A DNA stretch of 64,000 bases from Methylotenera oryzisoli (GTDB lineage Bacteria; Pseudomonadota; Gammaproteobacteria; Burkholderiales; Methylophilaceae). Positions within the stretch are counted from its first letter, which is position 1. Every line of letters begins with the position of its first letter. Shown piece by piece: positions 20,937 to 59,524 of this stretch. Under the pieces are notes generated by a model, which ran no database searches, was not told the origin of the DNA, and saw nothing but the letters and a program-made list of their open reading frames with translations. The position numbers were made by a program, and so were the translations under genes. The DNA lies in NCBI RefSeq assembly GCF_004661485.1, contig NZ_PQVH01000014.1, positions 1-64,000 on the forward strand, given 5' to 3'.

Positions 20937-20981
20937 TGGTGGCCCCCTGTGAGTCGAACACAGCACCAACGGATTATGAGT
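20937..20981 (-). other. Partial tRNA-Met 3' half: attachment-site copy
   Basis: 45 nt matching 32935-32980 of the intact tRNA-Met, from the CCA end through the T arm into the anticodon loop, with a single missing C. The D arm and 5' acceptor strand are absent, so it cannot fold as a tRNA. Such 3'-half repeats mark the distal end of tRNA-integrated islands. The match stops sharply at 20981. Confidence 0.88.
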
Positions 20982-21197: not shown

Positions 21198-21560
21198 TCA
21201 CATATGAAGTGATATGTGATGCTTTGGAATCAACACTGAATTCCAGCCACCTTTGCCTACCCGATTGCCTACGTAATGCTTATATGAAATTGGATCTTTA
21301 GGATTCTTACATTTATGGCGATGCTGATTACAAAAGTGACATGCAGCAACAATATTACTTTCACCGTCTTTACCGCCATCTTGTCTAGCTAATAAATGTT
21401 CGGCAGTGCATTTAAATAAAGCTGCACCTTTGGCAGTAATTTTGTATTTCTTTGCAAACGCTTCAGGATCATCCGTCCACATCGGTAATTCACAATAGAT
21501 GCAGCGACCTTGTTGAAGATTAAAAGCTTTAGTACGGGATTTGATTAAGGTTGTCGGCAT
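21198..21560 (-). CDS. HNH endonuclease
   Basis: 120 aa from the ATG at 21560, which has GGAG 7 nt upstream; the TTG four codons before is less likely. It has a zinc-binding pair CIYC near the start, CTAEHLLARQDGGKDGESN in the middle as the His-centred motif (EHLLARQDGG, then N) and CHFCNQHRHK as the second zinc pair. This is the standard HNH arrangement. Free-standing HNH enzymes cut DNA and are common in phages, islands and restriction systems. It is the last gene of the minus-strand island and is separated from the helicase by 400 bp. Its target is unknown. Confidence 0.85.
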   Translation of the reverse strand: MPTTLIKSRTKAFNLQQGRCIYCELPMWTDDPEAFAKKYKITAKGAALFKCTAEHLLARQDGGKDGESNIVAACHFCNQHRHKCKNPKDPISYKHYVGNRVGKGGWNSVLIPKHHISLHM

Positions 21561-21572
21561 AGCGAGCTCCAA

Positions 21573-21959: not shown

Positions 21960-24900
21960 TTAGGAGTAATCAGCGATAATCCGTAAGACAGGTTCCAACA
22001 ACTTAGCTTCGTCCACTGACGTACCGGTTCTGAGATATGTAGGGATATTTTCCAAGAACTCTGCTTTTGAACACGGTAAATGCTCTAACAATGCATCTAA
22101 CATATCTTGTCTTAGCAAGCGGCTGCTTTCTAATGTATCTGGATAAATTGCACGAATGTGACTATTATCAAATGCGATAAGTCGATCACGCAGGCTAATT
22201 ACCTCAGTCTCAAAAGATTCATCCTGAACTCTCTCATAGCCATTCTCGATTTTCCTGAACTTGACCCCACCAGTTTCAACAATGTCTCCAACATTAGTTT
22301 TTGAAAAATTCATTGTTGACTGATTGTGAGACACTTCGAGGTGATCGTTATCAATGCTCTCATAACCCGATTCGGCAAGAATCTCAACTGATGCTTCCTC
22401 AACCTCCTGGGTTGGTTCAGAGGTTACAGGTGTTCTCAAAGACTCAAGATCAAGAAGAATAGGTTGAATTTGAGCCTGTGGGTTTTTAAACCAATCAGTG
22501 GACCAAATACGACGGATCTTCCATCCAAGTCCCTCGAGAATATCCTGTCTCAATCGATCTCTGTCACGAGCCGACTTTGCAGAATGATAAGTAGCACCAT
22601 CACATTCAATACCCAATAAGAATCGACCTGGTTTACCGGGATCTTTCACAGCAATATCTAAGAAAAACCCTGCAACACCCAACTGAGGCTCACACTCATA
22701 GCCATGCTCCTCCAAAGCTTTAAGCACAGCAACTTCAAAATCACTGTCTGGTGACTTACCAGTATGGATGGAGTTATGAAGATGGCCGCTCTCAGCAAAC
22801 TCCAAAAAGGCTTTCAATGCTTTAACACCTCTACTACTCCCGGAGCCGATAAGAACATCACCAGAAGTCATAGAAGAGTAAATATGCATGCGCTTTTTCG
22901 AGCGAGTGAATAGAACATTTAATCTCCGCCAACCAACATCTGAATTAATTGGGCCAAATCGTTGCATGGTCCTACCGCCGACTTGTTCAGGCCCATAGGT
23001 CATAGAGATATAGATAACATCTCTTTCATCGCCTTGAACATTCTCAAGATTCTTGATGAACAAGGGCTCTTCACTCAGCTTATTATCTTCATATGCTTTA
23101 TACAAAGCTGGATTTTCTTTGGTTAGCTGATCTAATTGACGTTCAATTTCATCCCTTTGCTCAGAGTTCATAGCAACCAACCCTACCGATTCTTTGGGCT
23201 TACGCATCAGATGCTCAGCAACAGACCTGACGAGCTCAGTCGCCTCTTCAACATTTCGACGGTTAAAAAATCGACCGTTACCTACGAGTGAAAGCTTTAT
23301 GCCGAAATCAGGAGAGACTTTAAATGGTGATGGAAACAAGACAAGATCAGAGTCATAAAAATGTTTGTTTGAGAATGCTATTAAAGACTCGTGTTTTGAG
23401 CGGTAATGCCATCTCAGTCTACGGGTATTAAACATAGGCATGACAGACTCTAAAATACTTTCTGAATCTTGAAGGCCAACGATTTCCTCTTCAGCATCCT
23501 CCGTGACCATTTTATTAAAGAAGTTAGTAGGAGGGAGTTGCTTAGGATCCCCCACAACAACAAGTCTCGAACCACGAGCTATAGCACCCAGCGCATCTTC
23601 TGGACGAATTTGTGAAGCCTCGTCCATCACCACAAGATCAAAGTTAAACCTACCTGGCTCTAGATATTGCGCTACAGACATAGGGCTCATCATGAAACAT
23701 GGCTTTAAATCTTGAATAGCCCTACCAGCACGCTTAATAAGTGATCTAACAGCAATATGCTTGGACTTTTTAGTTGCTTCATGCTTAATAAGCGAGATTT
23801 CTGTGTATTCACCAACTTTACCTGAAGAGACACCAACAGGAGGTTTAACTCGCGATGCTTTATATGCAACCCTCTTGCGCTGTAGCGTTAAAAGCTTGTG
23901 ATCATACTCTCTGAATCGTTCTTGTATTGCCGTCTGCTCTAGACCAGTGAAGTTGGCAAGATCAGGATGTTCATCGAAGATCTCCCTAGCTAACTGATGA
24001 CTAGTAACCAAGCCGACAATATCTTGAAGATTCTGCGACCCCATGTCTGAAGATTCGATTACATTTATAAAGTTTTTGAAACCCTCACCATATAGTTTAT
24101 TTTTTAAGCGAATATAGTCGAGCCAAGTGTTAAGCCAATTAGGGTTATCAAGCGCCAACTTATTACGAGCTACTATTGAAGTAATTCTAGTGCCTGCAGA
24201 AGCGAGCCAATGGTTTAAATTAACATTACCCAAATTTTTGAATGATACACATAACTTATTTACGTCACTCAATTCCACAGAGAGTTGATTGGATTGTTTA
24301 CGAATATATTCATAACGACGTGCACTAGCATCTTTATCGATAGCCTGTTTAAGATGACTATTACTACATATTACTTTAGCAATGGCTAATATATTTCTAG
24401 CAACTGCTAGATTCAACTCGGAGAACTCACCTGCGGCAATGCTAAAAGTTCTATTGAACGGCTTAATAATCTTTAGTAATTCACTAGATTGCCATCCAAG
24501 AGATTTTTCTAATATATTTTCTATATCTTCGCCATGCTGCTTTAGGGCGTCAAGGAGCATATCTTTGGTCTTTACAACTTTTGAGAGTTTATCAAGTATC
24601 AGTGTTATCTCACGCGAAAGTTGGTTTAGCGAGCCAGCATCCCCAATAAGAGGCTTATCCTGACTTTTGCTTATAGAGTGGTAAGGGTAATGCTTATTTA
24701 ACTCAGATACTGTCGTTAATATGTCGAGAGCTTTTTGTCTAAGATTTTTGTTAGCCTCATCTATCAAAGATAGTCCAAATTGCCTATCGATTTTTAGGAG
24801 CTGACTACCAAGTTCAACCCTTTCCCCAAAACCAATCCCATACTCCTGCCTTACATCTCTGTACCATTTACGTAGCACATCAATACGATCGATAGGCGTA

Positions 24901-27560
24901 TCGAGACCATCAAACTGATTGCCAAGAACTGGATTCTCTTTATTAATACGAGCAATTTTCTCTTGCTCTTCAGTAAAAGTAATAATTTCAGGGAGCAAAC
25001 CCAAAAAGGCTTTTTTATTAGGATTTGTCTTCAATGAAAGACCAAGCACAGCTTTTCTAGCAGCCCTCCAGTCTGATGAAAACCACTTAAATAATCCACC
25101 ATTTTCCAACGTTGACTGATAGTCTTTTAGAACACCAGAGCTGCCGACCCTCTCAAAAGCAACCTCATCTTTTAATATGCTGAAGTAAGGTGCGATGAAG
25201 TCCAGCCTTTGCTTTAGCAATGGGATAAGGTTATCCAAATCTTGATTATCAAAGATATCGTCTCGGTACTTCCATAAGTCAGAAGGCAAACTCTCCAATA
25301 GTTTGACAAATATAATCAGCTCATCTAATCCTTTAGAGCTTAGATTAAATAGAAACTGTATTGGTAAAGGAGCGCTTGGTCGAATGCTTGAGAAAGTCGC
25401 CTCAAGCTCTAACGCATGCTGATTTGCCTTATCTAGTTTAGCGAGATCTTCAGCGAGCACGCTAATTGGCGCACTATTCTGGAGACCTGCCCTCTTTAAA
25501 AAGTCGACGACCTTATGTATTATTTCCGGAGTTGATTTTGAATAAATAGCGTCAATGTGGAAATTGGTTGAGAGCGCAATAATGTCTTTGTGCAAAATCT
25601 CATAAGTATTTAGCCAGCCATTTAAATAATCGTGCTTCTGATGAATAGATTCAAGAGTATCAAAAGTCTCGCCACCCAAAAGATCGGGTAATTTAGATGA
25701 TGCATAAACGAAAGACTCCACCTCAATAAGGCGGCACAAATCAGGTTCATCAAGCCCAAAGTCTTGGAGAGTTTTGTACCAACTGATTTCTAGCTGACTT
25801 AGACTATTAGACCAACCCTGCAAACCTTTAATGAGAGTATTAAGATCATCTGAGGTCAAGGAGTCATTCTCAACACCGTACCAAAAGTGATTCCTAATTT
25901 CCCCGTCTTTGGCTTGCTCAGAAATTTGGTTATAAATACTTCCAAGCATATGAGCATAATCACTAAGTTCATTTTGTCGAACAGGCGTCAAGTTATTACC
26001 ATTTAATCCATCAATTTTTAATGTGGATGGGTTAATACAGTACTGCTCCCTGAGTCTGGTTGTTTTCTGTAGAATTTCATGTATTGAAAGCCCTGTATTT
26101 TTCCAAATCCCATTAATCTTATTAACATAGTTGTTCAACTTGGATTTCAAGCTTTCATAACGATCAATATCTGCTTCTATCCCTTGTGGAGAGACAAACA
26201 GAGATTGTTTTGAAAGTCGTGAATTAAGATCACTTAGAATTTTTTGCTTATTGGTTTTATGGCTATGTAACTCTAGGCAAAAATCTCCAAGCCCGGCTTT
26301 ATCTAGGCGGCTTTTAACAACATTCAAAGCAGCCATTTTCTCAGCAACAAAAAGTACTTTGTGTCCATTAGCTATAGATGCTGCTATTAGGTTTGTAATT
26401 GTCTGAGACTTACCTGAACCTGGTGGCCCTTCAATAACTAGGTTTTTGCCATTAACGATGTCAATTACTGCGCTGTGTTGAGAGCTGTCGGCATCATATA
26501 TCAATGGATACTGATCATGAACGTTAGCTATATCATCAAGCTTATGTTCAGATTCATAGGTAAAACTGACGGCATCCCCGTTATCTACATTTGAAGCAAA
26601 AAACATTTGAATTAAAGGATGCTGCTCAATATTTGCATTTGCTGGCCAATTAGCGGGATCAAGATCCTCATACATGGCCTGTTTCGTAAAATTCAATAGC
26701 ACCAATGAGGCCTGCCTACGTAGCTTCCATCGCGGCTGATGCTTTAGAATAGTGCGCTGAACCTGCTGAAAGTAAGATTCAGGTGATGTTTCCTCGTCTA
26801 TAGGGGGGAGAATAAGATCGAAATCATTAGCCAGCTTCTCCCGAAGAGTGACGTTCGTGATTAAACCGTCATCCTTTAACTGCACAGTATAGCGATATGC
26901 GCCAGCCTTTTTATCTAAATCGGACCTTTCAAGCTGAACAGGTAAAGTAAACAAGGGAGACATCCTTGCCACATCGGAATCTCTAGACTCATACCACTCG
27001 AGAAAGCCTAAAGCCAAATAAAGAATATTCGCGCCACTCTCCTCTATGGCAACATCTGCTGCCCCCCGTATAGACCTAAGCCGAGCTTCGAGCTCAGGTG
27101 CATAAAAAAGGGTTTGAAGATTTGTGTCTAGGTGCTTAGCCTGCTTACTAGATGCTGTAATTTCAGGCAAATCATACGAGACAGTCAAACCTATATGCTT
27201 TGCCCATTGCTCTGCAGTCGGGTAGTCGCTGACAATACGCTGCCTAGTCTTTGTATCAATTTTTATGTAACTAGCATTAATTAATTCTTGCTCGGTTGGC
27301 TCGCTTACTGGAATTAATGTGAACTTGGCTCCACTTTCCAATACTGAATAAATTTGATCCGGCAACTCGTCAATAATTCTTATGCAACCGGACTTGGGGT
27401 GTTTAAAGTTAAGAAGGTTATTGCGGCCACTAAGGTCGAGTAGCCTTCTGCGGATAGCTGCTAGAGACGTAAAAGAGAAGTTTTCTGGAGTAGATAAATC
27501 TTGAGTTTGAGTTGAGCTTTCTTCAAACGACTCAAATGAGGATTCAAGTTTATCAGTCAT
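21960..27560 (-). CDS. DUF4011-type superfamily 1 helicase with a C-terminal Vsr/MTES_1575-like nuclease domain
   Basis: A 1866-aa protein. Residues about 30-280 match the DUF4011 N-terminal region (IRRRLLDLSGRNNLLNFK). The SF1 motor begins with Walker A EGPPGSGKSQT (residues 377-387); Walker B LVVMDEAS is near 1313, VVVGDPKQLPP near 1340, and a later helicase motif VQGDERDVIYIS near 1500. The two motor halves are split by about 900 residues of helical insert. Near residues 1590-1700 a restriction-fold domain appears: FEVAVLKALEEHGYECEPQLG, then FLDIAV, then LLGIECDGATYHSA and RDRDRLRQDILEGLGW. A DUF3320-like tail follows. Such proteins are found in defence islands. Anti-phage action is inferred. 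Confidence 0.85.
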   Translation of the reverse strand: MTDKLESSFESFEESSTQTQDLSTPENFSFTSLAAIRRRLLDLSGRNNLLNFKHPKSGCIRIIDELPDQIYSVLESGAKFTLIPVSEPTEQELINASYIKIDTKTRQRIVSDYPTAEQWAKHIGLTVSYDLPEITASSKQAKHLDTNLQTLFYAPELEARLRSIRGAADVAIEESGANILYLALGFLEWYESRDSDVARMSPLFTLPVQLERSDLDKKAGAYRYTVQLKDDGLITNVTLREKLANDFDLILPPIDEETSPESYFQQVQRTILKHQPRWKLRRQASLVLLNFTKQAMYEDLDPANWPANANIEQHPLIQMFFASNVDNGDAVSFTYESEHKLDDIANVHDQYPLIYDADSSQHSAVIDIVNGKNLVIEGPPGSGKSQTITNLIAASIANGHKVLFVAEKMAALNVVKSRLDKAGLGDFCLELHSHKTNKQKILSDLNSRLSKQSLFVSPQGIEADIDRYESLKSKLNNYVNKINGIWKNTGLSIHEILQKTTRLREQYCINPSTLKIDGLNGNNLTPVRQNELSDYAHMLGSIYNQISEQAKDGEIRNHFWYGVENDSLTSDDLNTLIKGLQGWSNSLSQLEISWYKTLQDFGLDEPDLCRLIEVESFVYASSKLPDLLGGETFDTLESIHQKHDYLNGWLNTYEILHKDIIALSTNFHIDAIYSKSTPEIIHKVVDFLKRAGLQNSAPISVLAEDLAKLDKANQHALELEATFSSIRPSAPLPIQFLFNLSSKGLDELIIFVKLLESLPSDLWKYRDDIFDNQDLDNLIPLLKQRLDFIAPYFSILKDEVAFERVGSSGVLKDYQSTLENGGLFKWFSSDWRAARKAVLGLSLKTNPNKKAFLGLLPEIITFTEEQEKIARINKENPVLGNQFDGLDTPIDRIDVLRKWYRDVRQEYGIGFGERVELGSQLLKIDRQFGLSLIDEANKNLRQKALDILTTVSELNKHYPYHSISKSQDKPLIGDAGSLNQLSREITLILDKLSKVVKTKDMLLDALKQHGEDIENILEKSLGWQSSELLKIIKPFNRTFSIAAGEFSELNLAVARNILAIAKVICSNSHLKQAIDKDASARRYEYIRKQSNQLSVELSDVNKLCVSFKNLGNVNLNHWLASAGTRITSIVARNKLALDNPNWLNTWLDYIRLKNKLYGEGFKNFINVIESSDMGSQNLQDIVGLVTSHQLAREIFDEHPDLANFTGLEQTAIQERFREYDHKLLTLQRKRVAYKASRVKPPVGVSSGKVGEYTEISLIKHEATKKSKHIAVRSLIKRAGRAIQDLKPCFMMSPMSVAQYLEPGRFNFDLVVMDEASQIRPEDALGAIARGSRLVVVGDPKQLPPTNFFNKMVTEDAEEEIVGLQDSESILESVMPMFNTRRLRWHYRSKHESLIAFSNKHFYDSDLVLFPSPFKVSPDFGIKLSLVGNGRFFNRRNVEEATELVRSVAEHLMRKPKESVGLVAMNSEQRDEIERQLDQLTKENPALYKAYEDNKLSEEPLFIKNLENVQGDERDVIYISMTYGPEQVGGRTMQRFGPINSDVGWRRLNVLFTRSKKRMHIYSSMTSGDVLIGSGSSRGVKALKAFLEFAESGHLHNSIHTGKSPDSDFEVAVLKALEEHGYECEPQLGVAGFFLDIAVKDPGKPGRFLLGIECDGATYHSAKSARDRDRLRQDILEGLGWKIRRIWSTDWFKNPQAQIQPILLDLESLRTPVTSEPTQEVEEASVEILAESGYESIDNDHLEVSHNQSTMNFSKTNVGDIVETGGVKFRKIENGYERVQDESFETEVISLRDRLIAFDNSHIRAIYPDTLESSRLLRQDMLDALLEHLPCSKAEFLENIPTYLRTGTSVDEAKLLEPVLRIIADYS

Positions 27561-28040: not shown

Positions 28041-28912
28041 GATATGCCTTCATTAAAGATCATCAGGACTGTTGGCCAACAAGATGGCTGTGCCAAATGC
28101 TAGAGGTCCACCCTAGTGGCTTTTATGCCTGGTTAAAGCAGCCACATTCAACACGCGCTAAGAATGATCAACGCCAAACTGGGTTGATTAAGCAATGTTG
28201 GCTGGAGTCTGGTGGTGTGTATGGCTACCGTAAAGTGCATAGCGACATGCGTGCCTTAGGTGAACGAATTGGTATTAACCGTGTGTACCGCCTGATGTAT
28301 AGGCATTGCTTGAAGGCACAGGTCGGCTACCGTAAACCAAGGCATTACGGTGGCAAGCCTTACCTGACCAGCCCCAACACGTTAAATAGGCAGTTCAATC
28401 CCGCTTACCCAGATCAGTCATGGGTGACGGATATTACTTATATCCGCACCCATGAAGGTTGGCTCTATCTGGCCGTTGTGATGGATTTGTTCTCCAGACG
28501 CATTGTGGGGTGGTCTATGCAATCACGTATCACCAAAGAGCTGGTGTTGGATGCGTTGCTGATGGCGGTGTGGCGCAGGAAACCTAAAAGCAAAGTATTG
28601 ATACATTCTGATCAGGGAAGCCAATACACCAGTGAGGATTGGGATGTGTTTTTAAAAGCTCACAACTTGGAATCCAGTATGAGCCGACGAGGCAACTGCC
28701 ATGATAATGCTGTGGCTGAAAGCTTCTTTCAACTACTAAAGCGGGAAAGGATTAAACGAAAAATATACAACCATCGTGATGATGCAAGGCAGGATATCTT
28801 TGACTACATTGAGTTGTTCTACAACTCAAAACGACGCCATAATTCCAATAACTTGTTATCTCCGATAGACTACGAAAATCAATACAAGAATACGGCTATA
28901 GAGTGTCTATAA
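28005..28912 (+). CDS. IS3-family transposase OrfB (DDE catalytic part)
   Basis: The first ATG is at 28097 (271 aa), but the frame is open from the slippery site and the residues before the ATG (YAFIKDHQDCWPTRWLCQ) match the family, so the real product is the OrfAB fusion. The rve integrase core has catalytic Asp in SWVTDITY, Asp in LIHSDQGSQY and Glu in NAVAESFFQLLK, the full DDE triad. It seems intact and could be active. Confidence 0.9.
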
Positions 28913-28927
28913 CACTAGTGGCGATTC

Positions 28928-28953
28928 AAAAAATCCGTTAATATTATTAACGG
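28928..28953 (-). terminator. Terminator after the DGQHR gene, abutting the IS
   Basis: An 8-bp stem with 3-nt loop (28935-28953) followed on the minus strand by a run of T. The T-run is at 28928-28933, exactly where the IS right end begins. It is AT-rich and moderate in strength. Confidence 0.6.
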
Positions 28954-28965
28954 GCGGTACTGAGT

Positions 28966-28983
28966 CTGTTCTAGCTAGAACAG
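28966..28983. repeat. Perfect 18-bp palindrome
   Basis: CTGTTCTAG followed by its exact complement CTAGAACAG, lying 14 bp after the stop codon of the DGQHR-domain gene. It could be part of that gene's terminator or a protein site. There are no further copies that I can see in the window. Confidence 0.5.
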
Positions 28984-28997
28984 CCTTTCAAACATAA

Positions 28998-31352
28998 TTA
29001 CATGATTTTGTTTCCCAATAATTGTTCATGTATTTTCTCTAAAGTTTTCACCTCTTCTTTAGTTAAGCCTTTTTCTTTAGAGCCATCATGAGCATAACTA
29101 TTTCTGTAAGTATTCAACAATGATAGCCATTTAGTCTTATCTGATTTACTGTTAAACCCATGACCAACATCGATTGAAAAAATATCTTCAAAATTTCTAA
29201 AGCTGTCACTTGATTCCTCAGGTAGTTTTGTCCAGAATTTTTCAATTATTGTTTTATAGTCAAGAATATGAAACATATCCGTCCATGGAATATCTCTTCT
29301 ACCAAATCCTTCTTTATATCGTTTCTCTATGTCTGCATTTGCCCTATTCACACATTCGTTTTTAATAGAACCTATCTCAAGATCCCAATCATCCTTGAAA
29401 AGAATTTTTAAATTATGTATTACGTTCTTTTTAATATACTTTTCAACCTCTGTACCATATCTACGACCATCCTCTAGAAGGGCCATATCTTGCCTTTCTA
29501 TCCAGTCCGCTAGGCCGTCTGGGAGAAAGTGGGGGTATTTCTGATGAACTAAAGATTGGAAGTATCTAAACCAATAAGTGTCAGCACCAGCGCCAAGCTT
29601 CCCTAATAACCTCTCTTCTTCTTCTTTTGGTAAATTCTGAATTTGAGACAGAAGAGCTTCAACATATTTGCTTATACACCTAAATCGTTCTTCAGGTTTT
29701 GTGAGTACGTTTACACTCTTATTATTTGATTCAAAAACATTTAAACTTCCTATTAATCTGATAAAAGCAAATGTTCCACGATTGGACATAATGAAATATC
29801 GGTCACGTGTAAAAATATCAGGGTATTTTTCTTCAACAAACTCGTAACACTTACTTAAAAACTTTACGATGCTATCTTGTGCATGCTGCATTGCACTATT
29901 ATTGTCATGATTGTTGATATTGTATAAAGAGGCTTCCGACCCATTTATTTCGTAGTTATTACCTTTTGCCTTGGGTAGTAACCCAGAACCCATCAAAGCG
30001 TCACCAAATGGACTTGCAGAAAGTTTTGCTTTATCCTCCCCCAAGGAAATTTTATTATAAAGTGGCCCAGACATTGAAGTGCTGAGTTCATCAATAATGG
30101 ATGACCTAAGTGCCTTTATTCTTGAATCGGCTCTGTCTGAATTCCAATATAAATCTTTTTCTAAAGTAATTCTTAATGTTGGACTAACAGCTTTTTGATT
30201 TTCATTAATATCCATAAAAATCTTAAGTTGTTCATTAGATTCCAAACCATAAAAAGCTACAACGGGAATGGTGTTACTTTCTTTAAAGTCTGACTGTGCA
30301 TAGCCATAAACTCTATGCTGGCCATCAATAATATAGGCTATGGCGTATGCATTAGGTATTTTTAAAATGCCTAGACGTGACCGAGAGTCCTCACCTCTTT
30401 GAGATGCCTCGAATTGAAGTTGCTCATTATTGCTAAAATTCAAAATGATAGAATTGGGAAAATAACCACCGTCATCTATAAATTTAGATATCCCTTGTAA
30501 CCTTTGTGGTACTAACAACCTTTGATAAGTGGGCATCTCTGCCTGATTGGCTCGGGTCCTATGCAAAATGAATCCAATTTTGAGCAACAGATGCGGCTCA
30601 ATTGAAAACATATAATACTTTTTGTTACCCATGAAGCCTTCAATTGCTGGCACTTCTATTCTGTCTTTGTTAATTGACTTACCTTTGAATAGCAATGACA
30701 TGAATTGATAATGAGCTGCTTTTTTATATGCTTTAATCAAGCTATTAACATACTCAAAAGTATTGTCATTATAAAAAAAAGAACCAGTTGATTTTAAACG
30801 CTGTATATCTACCCCATCCTCTTCTATTCTTAGATTTCGAGTAGCGAAAATGTATTTTACTTTTCTACTTCTGCCAAATAACTGCTCTAGGGTTTTTGAG
30901 AAACCCTGAAGTTTGACTTCTAGACTTTCAAATTCTGTTTTGAATGAGGAAGCTTTACTTAGTGTCTGGCTAGACTTACATTCAATAAGAAGTATTGAAT
31001 CATCATTTACTGCAAATACATCTATTTGTTTTTTCTCTAATACGTCTTTTCCAAAATTTAATCTGAAGTCATTACCTGTATTAAGACAACGATAGCCTAA
31101 GTCATATAACTGACACCAAATATCATCTTCAAATTTTGTGCTATGACTTTTACGTATTCGCAGTTTAGTTTTTGTCTTAAGTTGGCCAATTTCTTCCCAG
31201 CCATCCTTAATCATTGCATCTGCAAGGTTATGATCTACATTTCGAATGTAGTAATCGCTTTTCTTTGACTTATAAAGTTTTCCGAGGGTGGAAGGGTCTT
31301 CAGTAAATTTAGTTTTAAGCTGTTCTATCTCAGCAGACTCTATAAAAGCCAT
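28998..31352 (-). CDS. DGQHR-domain (DndB-related) protein with an N-terminal PD-(D/E)xK-like domain and a C-terminal HEPN-like motif
   Basis: A 784-aa protein. Residues about 70-170 show a restriction-fold pattern: Glu75, Asp111 in KKQIDVFAV, and Glu124-x-Lys126 in LLIECKSSQ. The middle holds the diagnostic AYIIDGQHRVYGY (DGQHR at 343-347) and the partner block FMDINENQKAVSP (about 380-391), as in DndB-type proteins of DNA modification systems. Near the C-terminus YRNSYAHDG gives R750 and H755, an RNxxAH pattern like HEPN ribonucleases. It lies 52 bp downstream of a Dam-type methyltransferase, forming an operon. A restriction or regulatory role tied to that methylation is inferred. Confidence 0.8.
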   Translation of the reverse strand: MAFIESAEIEQLKTKFTEDPSTLGKLYKSKKSDYYIRNVDHNLADAMIKDGWEEIGQLKTKTKLRIRKSHSTKFEDDIWCQLYDLGYRCLNTGNDFRLNFGKDVLEKKQIDVFAVNDDSILLIECKSSQTLSKASSFKTEFESLEVKLQGFSKTLEQLFGRSRKVKYIFATRNLRIEEDGVDIQRLKSTGSFFYNDNTFEYVNSLIKAYKKAAHYQFMSLLFKGKSINKDRIEVPAIEGFMGNKKYYMFSIEPHLLLKIGFILHRTRANQAEMPTYQRLLVPQRLQGISKFIDDGGYFPNSIILNFSNNEQLQFEASQRGEDSRSRLGILKIPNAYAIAYIIDGQHRVYGYAQSDFKESNTIPVVAFYGLESNEQLKIFMDINENQKAVSPTLRITLEKDLYWNSDRADSRIKALRSSIIDELSTSMSGPLYNKISLGEDKAKLSASPFGDALMGSGLLPKAKGNNYEINGSEASLYNINNHDNNSAMQHAQDSIVKFLSKCYEFVEEKYPDIFTRDRYFIMSNRGTFAFIRLIGSLNVFESNNKSVNVLTKPEERFRCISKYVEALLSQIQNLPKEEEERLLGKLGAGADTYWFRYFQSLVHQKYPHFLPDGLADWIERQDMALLEDGRRYGTEVEKYIKKNVIHNLKILFKDDWDLEIGSIKNECVNRANADIEKRYKEGFGRRDIPWTDMFHILDYKTIIEKFWTKLPEESSDSFRNFEDIFSIDVGHGFNSKSDKTKWLSLLNTYRNSYAHDGSKEKGLTKEEVKTLEKIHEQLLGNKIM

Positions 31353-31404
31353 ATTATTATTTTTCCCTTCTTTAGCATTTACATGTTGAGCAAATGTCTA
31401 GCCA

Positions 31405-32238
31405 CTATGATGCCCACCCAAATCTCATAATTACTTCGCTAGTAGTCTTTCTGTTACATGATTTCCCAGCAATCACGCTGCTTCGCTCGATCTTTTGGAT
31501 TTTACATAGTCCTGAATATAGATCATGAATCGACTCATGGTCTGCATTGCTCATTGTTAGCATTGCGCCCCTGCCTAATGCAGAAATGATGGAATTTTTT
31601 AAACGAATCTGATCATCCCAACTAAATATTTTTTCATTGTATTCGATGAATCCATTTAAATTGTGATTTACTGTGTAAGGTGGGTCAATGAAGACAAAGT
31701 CACCATGACCAGCCATAGATATAGTTTTTTCGAAATCTTGATTTAATATTTTGCCTTGACCTAGTCTTGCAGCTACAGCTTTGAATTTATCATCATCTAG
31801 AAATGCATTATTTCTTGTGCCAATTGGCACGTTGAATTTACCCTGTTTATTAACCCTGTATAGGCCATTAAAGCAAGTGCGATTTAGATAAAGAAACCGA
31901 GCAGCTCTAGTCACATTGCTTTCAGGCTCCTCTGCTCTGATCTGATAATAATATTCTTTAGTATGCTTAGCTTGATGGACCTCTAATAACCCCTGAACTT
32001 CTTTATAGTCCTCTTTGATAGCGATATAACAGTTAATCAAATCTTTATTGGTGTCAGATATTATGAAGGGCTTATATGGCATTGAGAAAAACACTGCTGC
32101 ACTACCCAAAAATGGCTCAATATAAGTGTTGTAATTGAGTGGTGCTATATGGTTTTCTTTTTTTATTAGCCATCTTTTACCTCCTGCCCACCTTAAAAAA
32201 GGTGCGAGTGATGTATTTTTTTCGTAATCTAATTGCAT
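31405..32238 (-). CDS. Dam-type DNA N6-adenine methyltransferase (D12 class)
   Basis: A 277-aa class alpha adenine methyltransferase. FLRWAGGKRWLI near residue 14 is the S-adenosylmethionine-binding motif, IEPFLGSAAVFFS near 41 is motif II, and FVFIDPPYTVNHN near 180 carries the catalytic DPPY. The central target-recognition region is normal in size. The family methylates adenine, often in GATC, but the target here cannot be read from sequence. It sits in one operon with the DGQHR protein, where it would protect or mark host DNA. A solitary housekeeping Dam is less likely, given the island context. Confidence 0.88.
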   Translation of the reverse strand: MQLDYEKNTSLAPFLRWAGGKRWLIKKENHIAPLNYNTYIEPFLGSAAVFFSMPYKPFIISDTNKDLINCYIAIKEDYKEVQGLLEVHQAKHTKEYYYQIRAEEPESNVTRAARFLYLNRTCFNGLYRVNKQGKFNVPIGTRNNAFLDDDKFKAVAARLGQGKILNQDFEKTISMAGHGDFVFIDPPYTVNHNLNGFIEYNEKIFSWDDQIRLKNSIISALGRGAMLTMSNADHESIHDLYSGLCKIQKIERSSVIAGKSCNRKTTSEVIMRFGWAS

Positions 32239-32292
32239 CTCAACTCAAGCTATTCATTATGATAAATACTACAAAAGAATCTAGATTAGAAA

Positions 32293-32628
32293 TTAATCTT
32301 TTAAATTTAATTGATTTAGTAGTGTCGTATAAAGCGTCAACTCACCGCTAGCACCAGGTCTAAAGTTATCTATAGTAAAGTCTTCGTCCTCTAAATCACT
32401 TTTGCGCAGAATCTGTAAAAACTGCATCTTTGTTGGCACTTCACCGGGTCTTGCAAGATGCAAATATACTGGTCTCAGTAACTTAATCAAGCCCTTATAT
32501 CCGTTAGTCTTATTGAGCATCAACCCCTCTCCTCTATGGTCCCAAGCAGTGGGCCATCTTTCTTTTACAGCTTCAAAGTAATGCCTAATAATATCTGCAA
32601 TCTCAATATCTTTTTCTTCAATAAACAT
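32293..32628 (-). CDS. Small protein resembling the C-terminal part of DGQHR-domain proteins
   Basis: 111 aa. The block YFEAVKERWPTAWDH, then LMLNKTNGYKGLIKLLRPVYLHL, resembles the tail I associate with DndB/DGQHR proteins, where a WP-AW segment precedes a KT-G-GALM-like helix. The DGQHR motif itself is missing. It is either a free-standing partner of the downstream methyltransferase and DGQHR protein, or the remnant of a truncated upstream homologue. The clean ATG and 54-bp spacing to the methyltransferase favour a translated gene; the low-GC non-coding stretch before it suits truncation. Confidence 0.6.
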   Translation of the reverse strand: MFIEEKDIEIADIIRHYFEAVKERWPTAWDHRGEGLMLNKTNGYKGLIKLLRPVYLHLARPGEVPTKMQFLQILRKSDLEDEDFTIDNFRPGASGELTLYTTLLNQLNLKD

Positions 32629-32893
32629 ATTTCGGAAAATTAGTTTCTTTGATTCTAATGCGTCCGCTTTTACTGTGTAGGTTTAATAGTTTCTTATCTT
32701 TAAATGCGCTGAAGCTTATTGATACTTTAAATTTTCTTATAATTAAATACTATAGAATATCATTTAAACTAAATTTTGCTAATTGCATAGTCTAAAATCA
32801 TTTTGAAAATATATAAACATGCTGATTTAATTGATTAGGCATGATGGTTCACTCTACTTTAGATTAAGACTAATAATCTTGCGGCTTACATAA

Positions 32894-32926
32894 GAAAAAC
32901 GACCTAGAGATTTCTCCCTAAGTCGT
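32894..32926 (-). terminator. Terminator of the intact tRNA-Met
   Basis: A stem of about 11 bp with two G-T pairs (32899-32909 with 32914-32926, one bulge) followed on the minus strand by five T. It lies 9 nt after the tRNA 3' end. It differs from the terminator at the partial copy, as expected if the island carried in its own downstream sequence. Confidence 0.7.
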
Positions 32927-32934
32927 CTTATTCT

Positions 32935-33013
<79 letters not shown>

Positions 33014-59300: not shown

Positions 59301-59524
59301 GCTTAACGCGAGCTTGATTGTCAATTGCAAGAATCAGCGGGCAGTGGCTATGGCAAAAGATATTTGCATAGTCACTACCTGCTGTTAGCTAGTAGAACCG
59401 CCTTGCGATTGCACTAGAAAAACATTAACATCAAAATATGGGGAATTAGCAGCCTCCCCGTTTCAAGACATTCACGTCCAAGGCCTGCTCAAATCTTATG
59501 GCATAATGCCTTAGAGGAGAAGCG

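What the first reader, a model, noticed from the sequence alone, without database searches (positions are those of the whole stretch)
28998..32628. Candidate undescribed defence operon: small protein, Dam-type methyltransferase, and a DGQHR protein with nuclease and HEPN-like motifs
Three same-strand genes with about 52-55 bp gaps inside a tRNA island. The 784-aa protein joins a PD-(D/E)xK pattern (E75, D111, E124-x-K126), a DndB-type DGQHR core (343-347) and an RNxxAH motif (R750...H755). Seen: the motifs. Known: DGQHR occurs in DndB and other DNA-modification systems. Inferred: an adenine-methylation-linked restriction or abortive-infection system in one polypeptide.
Basis: partly seen in the sequence, partly recalled or inferred. 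Interest (0 to 1): 0.85.

Follow-up and report, generated by a model that had tools for sequence, protein, structure and literature searches.

The report
Methylase-paired, probably two-nuclease defence protein
Two neighbouring genes, one for a DNA-marking enzyme and one for a large protein that looks like a DNA cutter, a molecular switch and an RNA cutter in one chain, probably form a bacterial defence system that many species share and that we did not find described.

The parts
28998..31352 (-). 784-aa effector: PD-(D/E)xK - ParB/DGQHR NTPase - helical - HEPN-like protein
30732..31145 (-). PD-(D/E)xK nuclease domain, residues 70-207 (E75, D111, E124, K126)
30186..30638 (-). ParB/Srx-type NTPase domain with DGQHR, residues 239-389
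29001..29489 (-). HEPN-like C-terminal helical domain, residues 622-784, R750-x4-H755
31405..32238 (-). D12-class (Dam/DpnM-like) adenine-N6 DNA methyltransferase, DPPY intact
   Evidence: Pfam 171 bits, TIGR00571 238 bits; DpnM 2dpm 188 bits
32293..32628 (-). 111-aa ORF: C-terminal remnant of a separate ~380-aa DGQHR gene (neighbour, not a component)
32935..32980 (.). right end repeat of the island = 3' end of tRNA-Met
20937..20981 (.). left end repeat of the island (98% copy, one base shorter)

Best explanation
It is a two-gene restriction-modification-like defence cassette. Step 1 (strong inference): the D12 methyltransferase puts N6-methyladenine on host DNA at a short Dam/DpnM-like site. 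Step 2 (strong inference from fold, motif and linkage): the 784-aa protein is the restriction effector, and its N-terminal PD-(D/E)xK domain cuts invading DNA that lacks the mark. Step 3 (inference by analogy with SspE and DndI): the central ParB-type domain with DGQHR binds and hydrolyses an NTP and acts as the switch that couples reading of methylated or unmethylated DNA to the nuclease. Step 4 (weakest): the C-terminal HEPN-like domain is a second, RNA-directed or regulatory effector. It is dispensable, since in most Bacteroidales relatives its catalytic motif is lost and an SF2 helicase gene usually follows. The 111-aa ORF plays no part.
Confidence: 0.62

Rival explanations
1. An ordinary Type II restriction-modification system: the 784-aa protein is a site-specific restriction enzyme for the same site as the methyltransferase, and the ParB-like and HEPN-like parts only bind DNA or hold the oligomer together.
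For: Gene pair, PD-(D/E)xK fold and motif; best PADLOC match of the methylase is a Type II MTase model.
Against: The NTPase motifs are among the most conserved residues (DGQHR, QR pair and N383 all 86 of 86). The methylase changes clade under closely related effectors: L024 and L042 effectors are 72% identical, their methylases 33%, with K9/Y138 against R9/R138 in Dam numbering. DpnII co-occurs in three loci.
Confidence: 0.2
2. An activated (abortive) system in which the mark licenses the effector, as PT-DNA does for SspE: the HEPN RNase or DNase fires on infection or when the partner methylase is inhibited, and the cell dies or stops growing.
For: HEPN-like domain near AbiF and Swt1; Abi_2 matched 15 of 62 members at E <= 0.01; GTP hydrolysis licenses the SspE nuclease (passages).
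Against: R-x4-H lost in 27 of 82 full-length rows while the DNase motif is kept in 73 of 77 rows with an adjacent methylase. No RNA partner found: upstream flanks of nine related loci and downstream flanks of ten gave one pairwise match, 64 bases next to the methylase gene; no Rfam match above threshold in 28900-32934.
Confidence: 0.12
3. A DndB-like regulator: the big protein mainly controls the amount of methylation (represses or limits the methylase), not a nuclease.
For: DndB-family core; DndB is reported as an ATP-dependent repressor (passages of PMC10853773).
Against: Conserved PD-(D/E)xK residues and fold at the N-terminus.
Confidence: 0.05

Closest known systems
SspE (SspABCD-SspE) and DndI (IscS-DndBCDE-DndI)
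   Same: A ParB-superfamily NTPase (D-G-Q-x-R motif) fused to a nuclease, paired with a DNA-modification module that supplies the self mark (passages seen).
   Different: Their NTPase is DUF262 and their nuclease an HNH domain, and the mark is phosphorothioate; here the core is DndB/DGQHR, the nuclease is PD-(D/E)xK at the N-terminus, HEPN-like at the C-terminus, and the mark is inferred to be N6-methyladenine. No DUF262 or DUF1524 match at E <= 1.
DndB / DpdB / DGQHR family (PF14072, TIGR03187)
   Same: DGQHR, QR pair and F-x3-N motifs; domain scores above the Pfam and TIGR03187 cut-offs.
   Different: Far below the DndB, DpdB and DGQHR_dnd_1 equivalog cut-offs (31.4 of 328, 65.9 of 300, 73.7 of 450); carries two further domains; no dnd or dpd system genes among the five island proteins scanned.
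GmrSD Type IV restriction enzymes
   Same: ParB/Srx-fold NTPase plus nuclease; DGQQR likened to DGQHR in print (passages of PMC4619093).
   Different: GmrSD cuts modified DNA (abstract lines) with an HNH nuclease; that it has no partner methylase is recalled.
DpnII/Dam-type (GATC) restriction-modification
   Same: D12 methylase closest to DpnM among solved structures; three relatives also encode DpnII.
   Different: No DpnII in the window's cassette; its methylase has R where Dam and DpnM have K9 and Y138, so the exact site is open.
AbiF / Swt1 HEPN proteins
   Different: Here fused to a DNase-NTPase; no ncRNA found.

Membership tests
PD-(D/E)xK nucleases | Core nuclease fold | tested here: met
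PD-(D/E)xK nucleases | Catalytic E...D...E-x-K | tested here: met
   present in the window; intact in 73 of 77 rows with an adjacent methylase
Restriction-modification (Type II-like) | Modification and restriction genes adjacent | tested here: met
   75 of 77 informative loci with a D12 methylase within 1 kb, one more with an N6/N4 methylase
Restriction-modification (Type II-like) | Cleavage blocked by the partner's methylation | not testable with these tools
   needs biochemistry
Restriction-modification (Type II-like) | Orthodox Type II enzymes need no NTP (recalled) | tested here: inconclusive
   ParB-type domain in the model; NTP use unknown
DGQHR/DndB domain family | Domain score above curated cut-off | tested here: met
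   PF14072 64.8 (cut-off 29.1); TIGR03187 121.9 (cut-off 58.85)
DndB of the Dnd system | Equivalog score and dnd neighbours | tested here: not met
   TIGR03233 31.4 of 328; no dnd system gene among the five island proteins scanned
SspE/DndI/GmrSD | DUF262 and DUF1524 domains | tested here: not met
   neither listed by Pfam at E <= 1
ParB/Srx NTPase fold | ParB N-domain fold | tested here: met
HEPN superfamily | HEPN helical fold | tested here: inconclusive
HEPN superfamily | R-x4-6-H motif | tested here: met
   RNSYAH in the window; R-x4-H in 57 of 86 rows
Dam/DpnM (GATC) methyltransferases | Dam-family score and recognition residues | tested here: inconclusive
   TIGR00571 238 bits, cut-off 114.85; N120, L122, R124, N126, P134 kept, K9 and Y138 both R; the roles of these residues are recalled
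Known PADLOC defence systems | Effector matches a named system's model | tested here: not met
   only the DpdB model, 70.2 bits, over the DGQHR core; NCBIfam DpdB 65.9 of 300

The most novel reading that the evidence does not exclude
The effector is a general reader of the N6-methyladenine self mark that relies on whichever adenine methylase sits beside it: a ParB-type NTP switch, told 'self' by methylated DNA, holds back (or releases) two nucleases in one chain, a DNase and an RNase. This would explain why the methylase has been exchanged wholesale between two clades (Dam position 138 is Y in 21 of 24 of one and K/R in 49 of 50 of the other) under effectors that remain up to 72% identical, and why DpnII can share the cassette. 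It would be a methyl-adenine counterpart of the phosphorothioate-gated Ssp/DndI systems.
Probability: 0.25. Interest if true: 0.85.

Novelty: new variant of a known kind. Interest (0 to 1): 0.68.

Why it matters
It would give the DGQHR/DndB family, described in the passages I saw mostly as regulators or accessory proteins, a clear role as the switch of a restriction effector. It would also add an adenine-methylation version of mark-gated NTPase nucleases. The natural methylase swaps and the HEPN-versus-helicase exchange provide ready-made comparisons to test where sequence specificity and toxicity reside.

Tried and rejected
Small protein as a third component: rejected. Apart from the window's own copies, only L107 and L108 of the 109 sequences searched have a match, and there it is the C-terminus of a 380-aa DGQHR protein; the six plasmid matches all lie under annotated DGQHR proteins; no phage match; absent from 100 related genomes.

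Guide or regulatory RNA for an AbiF-like HEPN: no support. Upstream flanks of nine related loci (seven with 500 bp, two with 99-132 bp; the tenth had none) and downstream flanks of ten (400 bp) gave one pairwise match, 64 bases next to the methylase gene of L031 and L039. Rfam gave one chance-level hit in the cassette (E 0.73). Promoter-like sites numbered 16 against 16.0 in shuffles; terminator-like sites 5 against 2.1, one of them just past the effector gene at 28953-28935.

Viral copies by the single protein: none; the alignment gave nine loci. E. coli: no match in 5,426 genomes at blastn sensitivity. Phages and plasmids by protein: 5 and 33 records, none covering 80% of the query. Solved structures by sequence profile: only spurious histone matches at E 0.043 or worse.

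HEPN loss versus helicase gain: 0 of 41 loci with R-x4-H and 22 of 26 without have the helicase within 1.5 kb downstream (Fisher p 6e-14; 67 of the 72 loci with an effector ORF of at least 740 aa, those with over 600 bp downstream). Of the 23 full-length motif-less rows that are on the tree, 22 form one clade, so this is roughly one event and the p-value overstates it. Other spacings of the motif were not counted.

Rows dropped: alignment A2 used 65 of 80 genome loci, 6 of 9 viral loci and the window. A3 used 62 C-terminal pieces chosen mostly from motif-bearing rows (5 motif-less), so its conservation of R and H is by selection. One search kept 88 of 108 sequences (at least 600 aa and over 80 bits), less two duplicates, giving 86. 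The two trees used the 74 rows with a methylase ORF of at least 200 aa.

Literature: seven answered searches of open-licence PMC papers. Six papers hold 'DGQHR'; I saw passages of three of them and only the listing of the other three. I also saw passages of five further papers. None of these passages describes the pair. Not searched: REBASE, bioRxiv, subscription journals. The roles of Dam positions 9 and 138 and the ParB GERR box are recalled.

Full report
Three minus-strand ORFs lie at the given coordinates with gaps of 52 and 54 bp, and every motif named is at the stated residue. The 784-aa protein scores above cut-off for the DndB/DGQHR domain (Pfam 64.8 bits, cut-off 29.1; TIGR03187 121.9, cut-off 58.85). 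The 277-aa protein is a D12/Dam-family adenine methyltransferase (Pfam 171 bits, TIGR00571 238 bits).

The 111-aa protein is not a component. It matches the end of the TIGR04172 model (positions 279-379 of 381) and is 40% identical over 105 residues to the end of a 380-aa DGQHR protein in L107, with similarity continuing upstream of its ATG. All six plasmid matches lie under annotated DGQHR proteins. Of the three opened, L111 and L112 have an annotated Dam-type or adenine methylase nearby, L112 and L110 a BglII/BstYI-family enzyme. None of the 80 relatives' loci has a match. It is a leftover of another gene beside the tRNA.

The pair is conserved. One scan of 84,980 species genomes found 379 relatives and returned the 80 closest. 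A script counted a same-strand D12 methylase within 1 kb upstream in 72 of 80, one on the opposite strand downstream (L036) and 7 without. Of those 7, L042 is a script artefact (its methylase ends at the start of the effector gene) and L092 has another D12 methylase directly upstream (161.8 bits). L076 has an N6/N4-type methylase 1.7 kb upstream with DpnII between. L045, L046 and L090 begin within 191 bp of a contig end. Only L040 has room and none. So 75 of 77 informative loci have a D12 methylase beside the effector and one more an N6/N4 methylase, in Pseudomonadota, Bacteroidota, Campylobacterota, Cloacimonadota and clostridial Bacillota (record titles). In L063, L073 and L083 the methylase frame is short or in two ORFs. 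Four viral-type loci have the methylase downstream and overlapping instead. This was counted on the closest 80 only; more distant relatives such as L002 and L003 sit with a radical-SAM gene.

The methylases fall into two deep clades (24 and 50 of 74). All 74 keep Dam residues N120, R124, N126 and P134 and DPPY. Dam position 138 is Y in 21 of 24 of one clade and K/R in 49 of 50 of the other, which includes the window. Clades change under related effectors: L024 and L042 effectors are 72% identical and their methylases 33%, with K9/Y138 against R9/R138. In L093, L094 and L076 a DpnII enzyme lies directly upstream of the effector gene. Either specificity tracks quickly, both clades mark overlapping sites, or the effector reads methyl-adenine more generally; this is the most interesting open question here.

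Setting. The 3' end of tRNA-Met (32935-32980) is repeated at 20937-20981 with one base missing, giving a 12-kb island. Inside lie an HNH ORF, an Hhe anti-phage protein (2586 bits, cut-off 2000), an IS3-type transposase pair (by eye) and the cassette, at 34-36% GC against 40-48% over 33-38 kb. I recognised no integrase in the ORF list. The effector is absent from 100 related genomes; several genomes of the genus carry further copies of the tRNA end nearby, which suggests an integration hotspot. Of 398 phylum genomes 11 have any match, and two of them a near-full-length one: the window's own and G298, where a D12 methylase is again directly upstream.

Conclusion. The best reading is a restriction-modification-like system whose effector joins a DNase, a ParB-type switch and an HEPN-like domain. 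It would work like SspE or DndI but is not a member of that family (no DUF262 or DUF1524). PADLOC has no model for the effector beyond the DpdB core, and no passage seen after seven literature searches describes the pair. Function remains inferred.

Noticed in passing
21960-27560 (-): 1866-aa Hhe anti-phage protein (NF042953 2586 bits, cut-off 2000) in the same repeat-bounded island.
   Followed up: partly
21198-21572 (-): 124-aa HNH endonuclease-like ORF at the left end of the island; weak matches to PtuB1 and type IV enzymes.
   Followed up: no
L002:6869-13570, L003:6860-13358, L102:9989-13514: A second lineage of the effector beside a radical-SAM or radical-SAM-like gene (L002 and L003 also have a second DGQHR gene and an annotated ATP-binding protein, GHKL-type in L002), with the nuclease lysine replaced (T, R, R). 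Possibly a system using a different DNA modification.
   Followed up: partly
L107:1689-4160, L111:1774-4324, L112:309-4276: Another cassette: Dam-type methylase, a small protein (no Pfam match in L107 and L111) and a 380-aa DGQHR protein; in L112 next to a BglII/BstYI-family enzyme.
   Followed up: partly
L020 and L099, effector residues 75 and 126: The same double change (E75 to K with K126 to R) in two distant relatives, which hints at a shared altered active site rather than random decay.
   Followed up: no
L058, L059, L061, L067, L069, L070, L071, L077, L079: A 147-150-aa gene (DUF7226 in L067, the one scanned together with Pfam) between methylase and effector in nine Bacteroidales-type loci.
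   Followed up: partly
L025, L052, L084, L091; L004:6935-7588: Broken or interrupted copies of the effector gene, and a lone C-terminal fragment in L004, as often seen for costly defence genes.
   Followed up: no
59439-59488 (+): chrB-b cis-regulatory RNA (Rfam RF03086, 44.5 bits).
   Followed up: no
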